Shown here: in pieces, positions 42,213-47,159 of the stretch
How positions within the stretch are numbered: position 1 is the first letter of the stretch
Layout of the letters: every line of letters begins with the position of its first letter
From: Paraconexibacter algicola
GTDB taxonomy: Bacteria > Actinomycetota > Thermoleophilia > Solirubrobacterales > Solirubrobacteraceae
DNA length: 64,000 nucleotides
Assembly (NCBI RefSeq): GCF_003044185.1
Contig: NZ_PYYB01000002.1
Span: forward strand, 310,001 to 374,000
Direction of reading: 5' to 3'
Notes under the pieces: generated by a model
What the model was told of the DNA's origin: nothing
Seen by the model: the letters and a program-made list of their open reading frames with translations, nothing else
The model's database searches: none
Translations under genes and position numbers: made by a program

Positions 42213-42608
42213 CTACTCCGACGTGAGGGCGACCTCGCGGTAGTCCCCGTCCTCGATCAGCCAGGACCGGACCTCGGGCTCGGCGTCCTTGAGGCCGACG
42301 ATGATCCACTCGACGCCGGGCCACAGCGCGCCGAAGTTCAGGTCGGTCTGGGACGGCTCGGGCGCCGACATGACGTGCGAGTGGTAGATCGCGCCGAGCT
42401 CCTCGCCGCGGTCCTCGAGCTCGTCGACGAGCCGCAGCAGGACGAGGCCGTCGATCTCGAAGCGGCGCTTGTCGTGCGCGGTGTTCTCGAGCTCGTGCAC
42501 GGCGACCGCGACGCCGTCGCGCGTGGCGACGACGCCGCAGCACTCCTCGGACACGTCGCGGCGCGCGTGCTCGACGATCTGCTCGAGCAGGGCGGGAGCG
42601 ATCTGCAT
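42213..42608 (-). CDS. mec: JAMM/MPN metalloprotease, Mec-like CysO-cysteine peptidase
   Basis: A 131-residue stand-alone JAMM protein. The zinc site is 'YHSHVMSAPEPSQTD' (H-x-H-x7-S-x2-D) near 75-89 with the upstream Glu in 'VSEECCGVV'. In Mycobacterium, Mec releases cysteine from the CysO carrier. Close linkage to cysM and cysO supports the same role; the protein could also trim the two extra residues of this CysO. ATG start with no clear ribosome site. Confidence 0.88.
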   Translation of the reverse strand: MQIAPALLEQIVEHARRDVSEECCGVVATRDGVAVAVHELENTAHDKRRFEIDGLVLLRLVDELEDRGEELGAIYHSHVMSAPEPSQTDLNFGALWPGVEWIIVGLKDAEPEVRSWLIEDGDYREVALTSE

Positions 42609-42867: not shown

Positions 42868-43842
42868 TTACCACCAGACGGTTGAGTCGAGGTTCTCGAC
42901 CTCGTCGACCGGCAGCGTGTAGATCCCGCTGCTCAGGTACTTCCAACCGTCGTCGCAGATGATGAAGACGACGTTGCCCTCGTCCATCTCGTTGGCGATC
43001 CGCACCGCCACGCGCGCGATCGCCCCCGAGGAGACGCCCGCGAACAGGCCCTCCTCGTCGAGCAGCTTGCGCGTCCAGATGATCGCGTCGCGGTTCGTGA
43101 CGAAGATCTTCCGGTCCAGGAGGGTCAGGTCGATGATCTCGGGGATGAACCCGTCGTCGAGCGAGCGCAGCCCCTGCACGGGCTCGCCCTGCATCGGCTC
43201 GGCGGCGACGATCTTCACGCGGTCCCCGAGCTCCTCCTTGAAGCGGCGGGCGTTGCCCATCAGCGTGCCGCCGGTGCCGAGACCCGCGACGAACGCGTCG
43301 ACGTTGCCGTCGAGCTCGGTGAGGATCTCCCGCGCGGTGCCGTTGTAGTGCGCCAGCGGGTTCGCGGGGTTCCCGTACTGGTAGGGCATGTAGTACGAGG
43401 CGTCGGCGTTCGCCATCTCGACGGCCATCGCGACCGCGCCGTTGGAGCCCTGGTTGCCCGGCGAGTAGACGATCTCGGCGCCGTACATCTGCAGCAGCTG
43501 CGTGCGCTCGGGCGTGACGTTGTCGGGCATCACGACCTTGAGCTTGTAGCCCTTGCGCCGACAGATCATCGCCAGTGCGATGCCGGTGTTCCCGGAGGTC
43601 GGCTCGAGGATCGTCTGGCCGGGGCTGATCGCGCCCTTGGCCTCCGCGTCCTCGATCAGCGACTTCGCGACGCGATCCTTGATCGACCCGGTCGGGTTCG
43701 CCGACTCGAGCTTGGCCCAGATGCGGACGCCCGGCTTGGGCGAGAGCCGCTTGAGCTCCACGAGGGGGGTGTTCCCGATCGCCTCGACGATGTCGCCGTA
43801 GCGACCGCCGCAGGGTCGGGTCTCCAGGGGCGGGAGAGCCAT
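42868..43842 (-). CDS. cysM: CysO-dependent cysteine synthase CysM
   Basis: PLP enzyme of 324 residues that adds the thiocarboxylate sulfur of CysO to O-phosphoserine. The PLP lysine is in 'NPTGSIKDRVAK' near 49, followed by 'TILEPTSGNTGIALAM', 'PYQYGNPANPLAHYNGT', 'AGLGTGGTLMGNARR' and the C-terminal 'DDGWKYLSSGIY', which closely matches mycobacterial CysM rather than CysK. ATG 43842 is used; the in-frame GTG at 43899 would lie in a terminator hairpin. A TACACT -10 lies ten bases upstream. Confidence 0.94.
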   Translation of the reverse strand: MALPPLETRPCGGRYGDIVEAIGNTPLVELKRLSPKPGVRIWAKLESANPTGSIKDRVAKSLIEDAEAKGAISPGQTILEPTSGNTGIALAMICRRKGYKLKVVMPDNVTPERTQLLQMYGAEIVYSPGNQGSNGAVAMAVEMANADASYYMPYQYGNPANPLAHYNGTAREILTELDGNVDAFVAGLGTGGTLMGNARRFKEELGDRVKIVAAEPMQGEPVQGLRSLDDGFIPEIIDLTLLDRKIFVTNRDAIIWTRKLLDEEGLFAGVSSGAIARVAVRIANEMDEGNVVFIICDDGWKYLSSGIYTLPVDEVENLDSTVWW

Positions 43843-43915: not shown

Positions 43916-45430
43916 CTAGCGACGCCTGACGCGCACCCAGCGGCCCGCGTTGCCCGCGCGGTCGACGACCCGCACGTACGGCCGGCGGCCGAGCTTGCGC
44001 GACACCTTCACGGCCTTGCCGTAGCGCGCGGTCAGGCGCCGCGAGCGCGCCGTCGTGCCGGTCGCGACCTGGACGAAGCCGACGCCGGAGACCGCGTCGC
44101 GGGCGCTGACCCGCAGCGTCGTCCCGCGCAGCGAGACGGTCCGCACCGCCGGCGCCGTGGTGTCGAGGACGATGTCGTCGGTGTAGGTCTGCGTCGGGTT
44201 CGCCGAGCCTGGGAAGCGGACGTACACGGTGCGTGGCAGGCGCTCCGCCAGCCCGCTGACGGGCAGCCGCCAGGCGTAGCGCTGGTCGGCGGCGATCGGC
44301 CGCTGCTCGGCGAAGTCGAAGCCACCATCGTTGGAGATCAGCACCGAGGTCGCACCCGCGGGCGGGCTGATGCGCAGCTCCACGTCGCGGCTGTTGACGT
44401 ACGCGGCGTGGAACTCGATCGTGACGCCGACGGGGCGGCCCGCACCCGTGCCCGGGTCGGGCGTGGGGGTCGGGGTCGGCGTGGGCGTCGGGTCGGGCGT
44501 CGGCGTGGGCGTCGGCCCCGGCGTCGAGGTCGTGTCCAGCGGCGTCGCGTAGAACGTGTAGCCGCCCGAGCTCCACCGCTGCACGCGCGCGTTGGAGTAC
44601 TCGCCGACGAACACGTTGCCCGCGAGGTCGCCGCCGTACTGGCCGAAGACGTCGATCGCGAGCGCGTTGTCGAGCTTGCCGGGCGCGGACCCGAAGCCGC
44701 CGAGGGTGCGGAACTCAACGCCGTCGCAGCCGATCAGCCGGACCGTGTGGCTGTCGATGTCCGACGCGAAGACGACGCCGAAGTCGTCGAGGTAGACGTC
44801 CGGGACGCGACCGCCGATGACGCGGCTGCCGACGCGGTCGAGGTCGGTGTCGTAGAGCGTGACCTCCTTGCTGCCGTGGCCGGCGACCGCGACGCGGTAG
44901 CCGCAGGAGGCGTACTGGTTGTAGGAGATGCCGTCGGGGTTGTCCAGCGTGACGGAGCGGCGACCGGCGAGCGTGGCCTTGTCGAGGCGCACGACCTCGT
45001 CCGAGCAGACGCTCGTCGCGAACACGTACGCGCTCGAGACGTCGAGTCCGCCTCGGCTCCAGGTCTCGGCGGGCTCGGTGCACGGGGACAGCGTGAAGCC
45101 GCGCTGGTAGACGCCGTCGCGCGTGAACTCCTGCACGCGGTTGGCGCCGTCGAGCGTCCAGACGCGGTTCTGCGGGTCGACGCTGATCGCGGCGATGCCG
45201 CCGCTGATCTGGCCGGGCGCGTCGCCGCTGCTGCCCCACTGGCGCAGCAGCGCGCCCGAGGGGCTGAGGACCTTCACGACGCCGTCGAGCCCGGCGTAGG
45301 CGTTGCCCTCGGTGTCGACGCCGAGCGCCTGCGGGGGATACGGGGCGGCGTGCGCACTGCCGGCGACGCCGAGCGCGAGCGCGGCGGCGGTGAGCGCCGC
45401 GCCCGTCAGCTTCCTGCGATGACCCTTCAC
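43916..45430 (-). CDS. secreted NHL-repeat beta-propeller protein with Pro-Thr linker
   Basis: A 504-residue exported protein. Signal peptide at about 1-29 (ending SAHA), then NHL/SMP30-type blades (about 30-290: 'GVDTEGNAYAGLDGVVKV', 'ISVDPQNRVWTLDGANRV', 'LAIDVFGQYGGDLAGNVFV'), a linker of alternating Pro and Thr (about 300-325), and C-terminal immunoglobulin-like beta repeats ('AVRTVSLRGTTLRVSARDAV'). GGAGG precedes the GTG start. It sits between cysO and cysM without obvious link to cysteine synthesis. Confidence 0.85.
   Translation of the reverse strand: MKGHRRKLTGAALTAAALALGVAGSAHAAPYPPQALGVDTEGNAYAGLDGVVKVLSPSGALLRQWGSSGDAPGQISGGIAAISVDPQNRVWTLDGANRVQEFTRDGVYQRGFTLSPCTEPAETWSRGGLDVSSAYVFATSVCSDEVVRLDKATLAGRRSVTLDNPDGISYNQYASCGYRVAVAGHGSKEVTLYDTDLDRVGSRVIGGRVPDVYLDDFGVVFASDIDSHTVRLIGCDGVEFRTLGGFGSAPGKLDNALAIDVFGQYGGDLAGNVFVGEYSNARVQRWSSGGYTFYATPLDTTSTPGPTPTPTPDPTPTPTPTPTPDPGTGAGRPVGVTIEFHAAYVNSRDVELRISPPAGATSVLISNDGGFDFAEQRPIAADQRYAWRLPVSGLAERLPRTVYVRFPGSANPTQTYTDDIVLDTTAPAVRTVSLRGTTLRVSARDAVSGVGFVQVATGTTARSRRLTARYGKAVKVSRKLGRRPYVRVVDRAGNAGRWVRVRRR
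44453..44520 (-). repeat. Pro-Thr codon repeat linker
   Basis: Alternating proline/threonine codons (seen on the plus strand as GGNGTN units) with two Asp interruptions. The linker resembles that in the propeller gene at 3567-3605. Confidence 0.65.
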
Positions 45431-45558: not shown

Positions 45559-45837
45559 TCAGGCGGCGCCGCCGGCCATCGCCGGCAGGATGACGAGGCT
45601 GTCGGACGCGCCGACGGCCGTCTGCAGCCCGTCGAGGACGCGGACGTCCTCGTCGTTGAGGTAGACGTTGACGTACCGGTTGAGGTCGCCGTCGGCGCCG
45701 AAGATCTGCGCCTTCGTCTCGGGGTGCTGCTCGGTCAGCGCGGTGAGTACCGCGCCGACGTCGGCACCCTCTGCGACGACCTCGCGCTCGCCGCCGACGG
45801 CGGGACGGAGGACCGGGGGGATGCGAATCGTGGCCAT
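45559..45837 (-). CDS. cysO: CysO/MoaD-like sulfur carrier with Ala-Ala C-terminal extension
   Basis: A 92-residue beta-grasp sulfur carrier. 'TIRIPPVLRPAVGGEREVVA', 'NRYVNVYLNDEDVRVLDGLQ' and 'DSLVILPAMAGG' match mycobacterial CysO closely. Carriers normally end in Gly-Gly, but this reading frame continues GGC GCC GCC TGA, adding two alanines, so the glycine carboxylate is not free in the primary product. It lies 69 bases after the moeZ-like gene and upstream of cysM and mec on the same strand. Confidence 0.94.
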   Translation of the reverse strand: MATIRIPPVLRPAVGGEREVVAEGADVGAVLTALTEQHPETKAQIFGADGDLNRYVNVYLNDEDVRVLDGLQTAVGASDSLVILPAMAGGAA

Positions 45838-45906: not shown

Positions 45907-47088
45907 TCAGCCCGCCGCGGCGCAGAACGCCTCGTAGTCGGGGAAGACACCGAGCTCGTCGTCGGAGATCTCCTCCGGGTCGCGCGAGCAGATCGGGCAC
46001 TCCGGGTCACGGCGCACCTTCAGCTCGGTCGTCGACGCGTCGAGGGCGTCGTACATGAGCAGACGGCCGATCAGCGGGTCGCCGGCGCCGAGGATGAGCT
46101 TGATGACCTCGGTGGCCTGGAGCAGGCCCATCGTGCCCGGCAGGACGCCGAGGACGCCGTTGGCCCCGCACGACGGCGCGAGCTCGGCCGGCGGCGGCTG
46201 CCGGAAGAGGCAGCGGTAGCACGGGCCCTCGTAGGGCTTGAAGACGCTGAGCTGGCCCTCGAAGCCGAGGATCGCGGCGCTGACGACCGGGATCTTCAGC
46301 CGCACCGTCGCGTCGTTGAGCAGGTACCGCGTCGGGAAGTTGTCGACGCCGTCGACGATGATGTCGTAGTCCTTGATGATGTCGACGATGTTCGAGGCGT
46401 CCAGGCGCGTCTCGTACTTCACGACCTTCACGTCGGGGTTCAGCGCGTTGATCGCCTGCTCGGCCGAGTCGACCTTCGCGACGCCGACGGTGTCGGTGCG
46501 GTGGATGATCTGGCGCTGCAGGTTCGAGACGTCGACGGTGTCGTCGTCGACGATGCCGAGCGTGCCGACGCCCGCGGCGGCGAGGTAGAACGCCGTCGGC
46601 GAGCCGAGCCCGCCGGCGCCGAGCAGCAGGACCTTCGACTCGAGCAGCTTCTGCTGGCCGTCCTCCCCGACCTCCGGGAGCAGGAAGTGCCGGGAGTAGC
46701 GCTGGCGCTGGTCGCCGCTCCACTGGAACGGGACCTCGACGTCGTAGCCGCGGTCCTTCCAGAGGGTGTAGCCGCCGGTCATCGACTCGACGTGCTCGTA
46801 GCCGAGGTCGTCGATGAGCGTCTTGGCGGCGAGCGCCGAGCGGTTGCCGGAGGCGCAGTAGAGGATCACGCGCTGCGAGCGGTCGGGGGCGACCGACTCG
46901 ATGCGCGACTCGAGGAAGCCGCGGGCCACGTGGGCGGCGCCCGGCAGCTTGCCGGCGCTGACCTCGTCGGTCTCGCGGACGTCGACGATCGCGACGTCCT
47001 CTCCGAGGAGCTGGGCGACCTCGGAGGGGTCGACCTCCGTGATCTCGCTCTTGACCTGCTTGATGAACTCGCTGCCCGAGGGGGTCAT
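45907..47088 (-). CDS. moeZ: rhodanese-ThiF adenylyltransferase/sulfurtransferase (MoeZ-like, domains in reversed order)
   Basis: Would adenylate the C-terminal glycine of CysO and load it with sulfur. In this 393-residue protein the rhodanese domain comes first (about 15-110, active loop CASGNR) and the E1-like ThiF domain second (about 120-370: GAGGLGSPTAFYLAAAG ATP site, 'QRQIIHRTDTVG', zinc pairs CYRC and CPIC). Known MoeZ has the opposite order. The ATG is preceded by AGGTG; a GTG at 47100 is in frame. A clean TATACT -10 at 47132-47137 starts the cysteine gene run. Confidence 0.9.
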   Translation of the reverse strand: MTPSGSEFIKQVKSEITEVDPSEVAQLLGEDVAIVDVRETDEVSAGKLPGAAHVARGFLESRIESVAPDRSQRVILYCASGNRSALAAKTLIDDLGYEHVESMTGGYTLWKDRGYDVEVPFQWSGDQRQRYSRHFLLPEVGEDGQQKLLESKVLLLGAGGLGSPTAFYLAAAGVGTLGIVDDDTVDVSNLQRQIIHRTDTVGVAKVDSAEQAINALNPDVKVVKYETRLDASNIVDIIKDYDIIVDGVDNFPTRYLLNDATVRLKIPVVSAAILGFEGQLSVFKPYEGPCYRCLFRQPPPAELAPSCGANGVLGVLPGTMGLLQATEVIKLILGAGDPLIGRLLMYDALDASTTELKVRRDPECPICSRDPEEISDDELGVFPDYEAFCAAAG

Positions 47089-47131
47089 CCCGTTAATCAC
47101 CTGAATCGCGGTCGGGTATTCGACTTCAGAA

Positions 47132-47137
47132 AGTATA
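47132..47137 (-). promoter_or_regulatory. -10 element TATACT for moeZ-cysO
   Basis: TATACT on the minus strand, 43 bases before the moeZ ATG; the closest to consensus in the window. The leader contains an AGGTG ribosome site. Confidence 0.6.
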
Positions 47138-47159
47138 GCGACACCGTTGCGCCAACGAC

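What the first reader, a model, noticed from the sequence alone, without database searches (positions are those of the whole stretch)
45559..45837. Sulfur carrier CysO encoded as a Gly-Gly-Ala-Ala precursor
The 3' end reads GCC GGC GGC GCC GCC TGA, so the di-glycine needed for adenylation is masked by two alanines. Mycobacterial CysO ends in Gly-Gly. Known precedents of C-terminally extended carriers (QbsE, PdtH; Gly-Gly-Cys-Phe trimmed by JAMM proteins) make a pro-CysO processed by the linked JAMM protein at 42213-42608 plausible. That would give one protease two jobs: carrier maturation and cysteine release.
Basis: partly seen in the sequence, partly recalled or inferred. Interest (0 to 1): 0.68.

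Follow-up and report, generated by a model that had tools for sequence, protein, structure and literature searches.

The report
Capped sulfur carrier trimmed by JAMM
The small protein that carries sulfur for making cysteine is encoded here with two extra residues covering its working end, and a survey of related genomes indicates that the neighbouring JAMM protease cuts such caps off; capped carriers were already known, but here the cap turns out to be widespread, fast-changing and found essentially only where that protease is present.

Summary
In detail: the minus-strand gene 45559-45837 encodes a CysO-type sulfur carrier ending ...ILPAMAGG-Ala-Ala. GGAA itself is not conserved. Nearest relatives end GGA, GGR or GGAA, and some end exactly at GG. 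Having a cap is the rule: of 169 distinct JAMM-operon-type CysOs, 138 have a tail, 7 are fused in frame to CysM, and 24 end at GG. The GG never changes while the tail changes at least 113 times on the tree. Tails are mostly 1-2 residues; the first residue is nearly always small or polar, never Pro. In 35 JAMM-less actinobacterial genomes, 0 of 82 sulfur carriers are capped; in 26 JAMM-bearing Thermoleophilia genomes, 25 hold at least one capped or fused carrier. The window's genome has one JAMM and three masked carriers. Best explanation: the linked JAMM (Mec type) cuts after GG, both to mature pro-CysO and to release cysteine from CysO-Cys. This is inferred, not shown biochemically. Capped carriers plus JAMM are known (QbsE, HcyS; Streptomyces PtmS2/PtmS3/PtmS1, PMC6006322), so this is a new member of a known kind. 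The JAMM-cap rule and the CysO-CysM and CysO-MoeZ fusions are the newer parts.

The parts
45559..45837 (-). cysO-type sulfur carrier (pro-CysO), 92 aa, ends ILPAMAGGAA
   Evidence: PF02597 E 2e-12; best solved relative M. tuberculosis CysO 3dwg/3dwm, E 5e-19
45562..45567 (-). the two cap codons GCC GCC (Ala-Ala) before the TGA at 45559-45561
   Evidence: read directly
45568..45573 (-). Gly-Gly codons GGC GGC; last Gly is the predicted cleavage and thiocarboxylation point
   Evidence: invariant in all carriers with the CysO motif
42213..42608 (-). JAMM metalloprotease of Mec type, 131 aa, only Prok-JAB of the genome; active-site residues E22, H76, H78, S86, D89
   Evidence: PF14464 E 2.8e-18; single copy; invariant motif; model pLDDT 96, best fold match P. 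furiosus JAMM1, also in its complex with SAMP2
42868..43842 (-). cysM, cysteine synthase of the M. tuberculosis O-phosphoserine / CysO-dependent type
   Evidence: PF00291; best solved relatives 3dki and 3dwg (CysM-CysO complex), E 1e-92, well ahead of CysK
45907..47157 (-). rhodanese + ThiF/MoeB (MoeZ-like) activating enzyme; exact start uncertain
   Evidence: PF00581 and PF00899; NF006444 MoeB above cut-off
43916..45430 (-). secreted NHL-repeat-like protein lying between cysO and cysM; no evident part in the pathway
   Evidence: weak NHL-type match only; no Pfam match

Best explanation
The gene encodes a precursor of the sulfur carrier CysO whose C-terminal Gly-Gly is covered by Ala-Ala. The JAMM metalloprotease of the same cluster hydrolyses the bond after the second Gly (inferred). 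The freed GG is adenylated and thiocarboxylated by the adjacent rhodanese-ThiF enzyme, CysM joins it to the aminoacrylate of O-phosphoserine to give CysO-Cys, and the same JAMM cuts the Gly-Cys bond to release cysteine (pathway established for M. tuberculosis, PMC3227635; assigned here by homology). Maturation and release are therefore one reaction on two amides. Because the JAMM is always there, short caps are tolerated and drift freely in sequence, provided they are short and begin with a residue the protease accepts. The same tolerance would explain in-frame fusions of carriers to CysM, MoeZ, MoaE and ThiG with GG at the junction.
For: GG is invariant although not C-terminal in 145 of 169 distinct CysOs of this type, with at least 113 changes of tail on the tree; pairs at least 90% identical in the core share the tail less than half the time. 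Tails are short: 80% are 2 aa or less, versus 5% expected if the present stop codons were simply lost. First cap residue: Pro 0/145 versus 15/178 at later positions, bulky hydrophobic 1/145 versus 29/178, A/G/S/C 105/145 versus 69/178; this holds at 80% clustering. JAMM-less genomes: 0 of 82 carriers masked in 35 genomes of 16 families; JAMM-bearing class sample: 25 of 26 genomes hold a masked carrier (Fisher 3e-16 by genome, 4e-7 by family). CysO-CysM fusions with GG at the junction and JAMM nearby, and a CysO-MoeZ fusion with JAMM beside it. One JAMM in the own genome, complete JAMM motif in all 163 full-length relatives, best fold match PfJAMM1 including its complex with the carrier-like SAMP2. 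Literature: deleting JAMM ptmS1 stops use of capped carriers in Streptomyces (PMC6006322); DRJAMM cleaves a MoaD-MoaE fusion after Gly (PMC8832034).
Against: No cleavage, mass or activity data for this protein. 24 of 169 orthologues need no trimming, so the cap is dispensable. Three genomes (G065, G105, G177) have a tailed or fused CysO but no JAMM found; in each, cysO lies 0.6-1.3 kb from a contig end on the side where relatives carry the JAMM, so this is probably assembly loss, but it is not proven. The co-occurrence could in part reflect shared ancestry. In JAMM-less genomes the carriers are mostly MoaD and ThiS, not CysO.
Confidence: 0.8

Rival explanations
1. The cap is an adaptive gate: it keeps newly made CysO away from the activating enzyme until JAMM is available, so carrier supply is regulated by the protease.
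For: Caps stay short and have a constrained first residue, and are kept in most lineages.
Against: The cap is lost or changed often (at least 24 changes of state, 113 of sequence) and its sequence is not conserved even between near relatives; JAMM is encoded beside the carrier, so little gating is expected.
Confidence: 0.13
2. Another peptidase (a carboxypeptidase or a housekeeping protease) removes the cap, and JAMM acts only on CysO-Cys.
For: JAMM is kept in lineages with exact-GG CysO (18 such loci), so it has another job; short caps could be nibbled by a carboxypeptidase.
Against: Caps and fusions are absent from the JAMM-less genomes surveyed, which should also have general peptidases; trimming from the end cannot mature fusions to CysM, MoeZ or MoaE; in Streptomyces loss of the JAMM abolishes use of capped carriers (PMC6006322).
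Confidence: 0.08
3. The cap is not removed: this CysO is not a thiocarboxylate carrier, or works with its extension (for example as a protein modifier or a scaffold).
For: NCBIfam places it in the SAMP1 family just above cut-off (63.5 versus 60 bits).
Against: GG would not be expected to stay invariant beneath a drifting tail; the operon has CysM, a rhodanese-ThiF enzyme and JAMM as in M. tuberculosis; MoaD needs a free GG (PMC4326299).
Confidence: 0.03

Closest known systems
Capped sulfur carriers PtmS2 (cap MV) and PtmS3 (cap C) with JAMM PtmS1, Streptomyces platensis (PMC6006322)
   Same: Actinobacterial ThiS/MoaD-like carrier with one or two residues after GG; capped carrier gene clustered with a JAMM; JAMM needed in vivo for the product made with capped carriers.
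   Different: Shown for thiocarboxylic acid natural products; the caps differ and no role in CysM-dependent cysteine synthesis was tested there.
M. tuberculosis CysO / CysM / Mec / MoeZ cysteine pathway (PMC3227635; structures 3dwg, 3dki)
   Same: Same carrier family, same CysM type, linked JAMM, rhodanese-ThiF enzyme.
   Different: M. tuberculosis CysO ends at Gly-Gly, so its Mec only releases cysteine; here the carrier also needs trimming, and the rhodanese domain is N-terminal to ThiF.
QbsE/QbsD (Gly-Gly-Cys-Phe) and PdtH, Pseudomonas; HcyS/HcyD (Gly-Gly-Ala), Wolinella (own knowledge; QbsD also cited in PMC6006322)
   Same: Carrier made with residues after GG that a JAMM protein removes before activation.
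   Different: Siderophore or homocysteine pathways; unrelated cap sequences.
DRJAMM and the MoaD-MoaE fusion of Deinococcus (PMC8832034); MoaX of M. tuberculosis (PMC4326299)
   Same: Carrier fused in frame to its partner enzyme, freed by cleavage after GG (by JAMM in Deinococcus).
   Different: Molybdenum cofactor, not cysteine; in relatives of the window CysO the fused partner is CysM or MoeZ.

Membership tests
CysO-type sulfur carrier (ThiS/MoaD superfamily) | ThiS beta-grasp domain ending in Gly-Gly | tested here: met
   PF02597 residues 6-90, GG at 89-90; M. tuberculosis CysO best solved relative
CysO-type sulfur carrier (ThiS/MoaD superfamily) | gene linked to CysM, JAMM and a ThiF/rhodanese enzyme | tested here: met
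   all four within 42.2-47.2 kb on the minus strand
CysO-type sulfur carrier (ThiS/MoaD superfamily) | free C-terminal Gly-Gly in the encoded protein | tested here: not met
   two Ala follow; expected for a precursor, so the claim is 'precursor of a CysO-type carrier'
CysO-type sulfur carrier (ThiS/MoaD superfamily) | forms a C-terminal thiocarboxylate and CysO-Cys | not testable with these tools
   needs biochemistry
JAMM-matured capped sulfur carrier (QbsE, PtmS2, HcyS type) | one to a few residues after GG | tested here: met
   Ala-Ala here; 138 tails in 169 distinct relatives
JAMM-matured capped sulfur carrier (QbsE, PtmS2, HcyS type) | JAMM protease encoded nearby or in the genome | tested here: met
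   42213-42608, only Prok-JAB in the genome
JAMM-matured capped sulfur carrier (QbsE, PtmS2, HcyS type) | cap removed by the JAMM before activation | not testable with these tools
   inferred from co-occurrence and fusions
JAMM / Mec metalloprotease | E...HSH-x7-S-x2-D zinc motif and JAMM fold | tested here: met
   E22, H76, H78, S86, D89 invariant; fold match PfJAMM1 TM 0.88-0.89
JAMM / Mec metalloprotease | hydrolyses CysO-Cys | not testable with these tools
   known for M. tuberculosis Mec (PMC3227635)

The most novel reading that the evidence does not exclude
In Actinobacteria a Mec-type JAMM is the general and obligate maturase of sulfur carriers. Once it exists, carriers may end in almost any short cap or be fused to their own enzymes (CysM, MoeZ, MoaE, ThiG), a ratchet that makes the cysteine-releasing protease indispensable for several sulfur pathways at once.
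Probability: 0.55. Interest if true: 0.62.

Novelty: new member of a known kind. Interest (0 to 1): 0.5.

Why it matters
Sulfur carriers are normally annotated as if GG were the end; here most members of a whole class of bacteria make them as precursors or polyproteins. It predicts that one metalloprotease gates cysteine and molybdenum cofactor synthesis (and, in relatives with the fusion, thiamine) together. It gives a genomic test for JAMM function (caps are absent from surveyed JAMM-less genomes) and parallels ubiquitin precursors, which are also made with tails or as fusions and cut after Gly-Gly.

Tried and rejected
Conserved GGAA motif: rejected, tails vary even between near relatives. 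Annotation or stop-codon artefact: rejected, the frame and stop are plain and tails recur across families. Random stop loss: rejected as the sole origin, since observed tails are far shorter than reading on would give, although R, S, Q, C, G and E as first residue are one step from a stop codon. Several JAMMs sharing the work in the own genome: rejected, only one Prok-JAB. Two family-search calls failed on wrong coordinates and were repeated correctly. Paper searches for a described CysO-CysM fusion found none in the open library, which does not prove that none is known. Four PF02597 hits that do not end in GG (L290, L291, L292, L318) were left out of the counts.

Full report
What is there. 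The gene at 45559-45837 (minus strand) encodes a 92-residue ThiS-family protein (PF02597) whose nearest solved relative is M. tuberculosis CysO (3dwg/3dwm). It ends ...LVILPAMAGG followed by GCC GCC TGA, i.e. Ala-Ala-stop. Around it on the same strand lie a rhodanese-ThiF enzyme (45907-47157), a secreted NHL-repeat-like protein (43916-45430), a CysM whose best solved relatives are the M. tuberculosis O-phosphoserine sulfhydrylase and the CysM-CysO complex (42868-43842), and a JAMM protease (42213-42608). The JAMM is the only Prok-JAB in the 4.7-Mb genome. Its active-site residues are invariant in relatives, and a confident model (pLDDT 96) matches P. furiosus JAMM1 best, including the complex of that enzyme with the carrier-like protein SAMP2.

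Is the tail conserved? The sequence is not; the presence of a tail is. From 80 named loci and genomes of the class I read the C-termini directly. After removing duplicates there are 169 distinct CysOs of the PAMAGG type: 138 with a tail, 7 fused to CysM, 24 ending at GG. The Gly-Gly is always there. The nearest relatives end in GGA (same genus), GGR (Paraconexibacter antarcticus) or GGAA. Pairs with at least 90% identical cores share the tail in fewer than half of cases, and pairs at 80-90% in under 10%. On a tree of the cores there are at least 24 changes between exact, tailed and fused and 113 changes of tail sequence; a 90-residue tree is noisy, so these are rough.

Signs that the tail is cut. 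(1) An invariant Gly-Gly below a drifting tail makes sense only if GG becomes the end. (2) Tails are short: 80% are one or two residues, whereas loss of the present stops would give a median of 42 and only 5% of two or fewer. (3) The residue after GG is restricted: no Pro in 145, one bulky hydrophobic residue, 72% A/G/S/C, against 8%, 16% and 39% at later tail positions; this holds at 85% and 80% clustering and, for A/G/S/C, at 75%. This is what a protease's P1' pocket would impose, although part of the pattern could reflect codons near stop codons. (4) In several lineages CysO is fused in frame to CysM with GG at the junction, in one genome to the MoeZ-type activating enzyme (L403), and in others carriers are fused to MoaE or ThiG. 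A fused GG cannot be thiocarboxylated without a cut.

JAMM and masked carriers go together. In 35 actinobacterial genomes without a Prok-JAB (12 of the class, 23 of other classes; 16 families), all 82 ThiS-family carriers ending in GG end exactly there (one has an extra Gly). In the class sample of 41 genomes, 25 of the 26 JAMM-bearing genomes with carriers hold at least one masked carrier. Of 28 JAMM-bearing families read, 22 have a masked carrier; of 16 JAMM-less families none has. Fisher tests: 3e-16 by genome and 4e-7 by family. The matched comparison within MoaD points the same way: fused to MoaE in most JAMM-bearing genomes of the class, always free in JAMM-less ones. Three genomes (G065, G105, G177) show a tailed or fused CysO but no JAMM; in all three cysO lies close to a contig end on the side where relatives have the JAMM, so assembly gaps are likely.

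How it works. Established for M. tuberculosis: MoeZ thiocarboxylates CysO, CysM makes CysO-Cys, Mec hydrolyses it (PMC3227635). Inferred here: the JAMM also cuts Gly-Ala in pro-CysO. In several relatives the encoded cap is Cys (L020/L070, L128, and the own second carrier L001); GG-Cys has the same covalent structure as the CysO-Cys intermediate that Mec already hydrolyses, which makes cutting of caps the default expectation. The own genome further holds a MoaD-MoaE fusion (L003), so one JAMM would serve at least three masked carriers plus cysteine release. Persistence of JAMM beside exact-GG CysOs (18 loci) fits its second role.

What is known. Capped carriers trimmed by JAMM proteins are known from QbsE/QbsD, PdtH and HcyS/HcyD (own knowledge) and, closest, from Streptomyces platensis, where PtmS2 and PtmS3 carry caps MV and C and loss of JAMM PtmS1 abolishes the product that depends on them (PMC6006322). 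DRJAMM cleaves a MoaD-MoaE fusion in Deinococcus (PMC8832034), MoaX must be cleaved in mycobacteria (PMC4326299), and E. coli seems to lack the system for cleaving MoaX (PMC3227635). The operon type was catalogued in 2006 (PMC1779556). I found no description of CysO-CysM or CysO-MoeZ fusions in the open library. The window gene is therefore a new member of a known kind; the broad rule and the fusions are the fresher part.

Limits. No biochemistry. E-values and Fisher tests ignore relatedness except through clustering and family counts. Many genomes are draft assemblies; most JAMM-less genomes used are at least 90% complete. Most JAMM-bearing families outside the class were read at only one or two carriers.

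Noticed in passing
L180:5998-7224, L181:6001-7224, L182:6001-7230, L184:6004-7239, L185:5029-6264, L191:9-1232, L252:574-1773: In-frame CysO-CysM fusions (399-411 aa) with Gly-Gly at the junction and a very short linker, in at least three lineages; a JAMM lies within 1.4 kb in all but L191, whose contig ends there.
   Followed up: partly
L403:813-2330 (minus): A CysO fused in frame to its own ThiF-rhodanese activating enzyme (ThiS + ThiF + rhodanese, 505-codon open frame), with a JAMM gene about 0.3 kb away.
   Followed up: partly
L001:1489-1767 (own genome, contig C4): A second CysO-like carrier ending GG-Cys directly downstream of a threonine-synthase-like gene; an encoded GG-Cys has the same covalent structure as the CysO-Cys intermediate.
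   Followed up: partly
L003:1486-2127 (own genome, contig C1): MoaD-MoaE fusion with PPVSGG at the junction; the same single JAMM would have to cut it.
   Followed up: yes
L316:1147-2508, L323:667-1926 (minus): ThiS-ThiG-like fusions with GG at the junction in two JAMM-bearing genomes.
   Followed up: no
L329:127-3738: A different JAMM operon in family f9: cysteine-synthase-like gene, TusA/SirA-like protein, a ThiS-like carrier with a 16-residue tail after GGG, MoeB/ThiF, JAMM and a LarE-like gene; tails vary among relatives (L324-L328).
   Followed up: partly
L244:1375-1857 (minus): CysO with a 41-residue tail made of repeats like GSGGLMPSPPAAR, an apparent coding minisatellite containing further Gly-Gly pairs.
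   Followed up: no
window 43916-45430 (minus): A secreted NHL-repeat-like protein sits between cysO and cysM; in other families cysO, cysM and JAMM are adjacent (about 1.3 kb from cysO to JAMM).
   Followed up: no
window 45907-47157 (minus): The activating enzyme has its rhodanese domain before ThiF, the reverse of the usual MoeZ/MoeBR order.
   Followed up: no
L292 (G010), L318 (G006): Carrier-like proteins ending PAVGAC and PAVSG, i.e. without Gly-Gly; possibly degenerate or not sulfur carriers.
   Followed up: no
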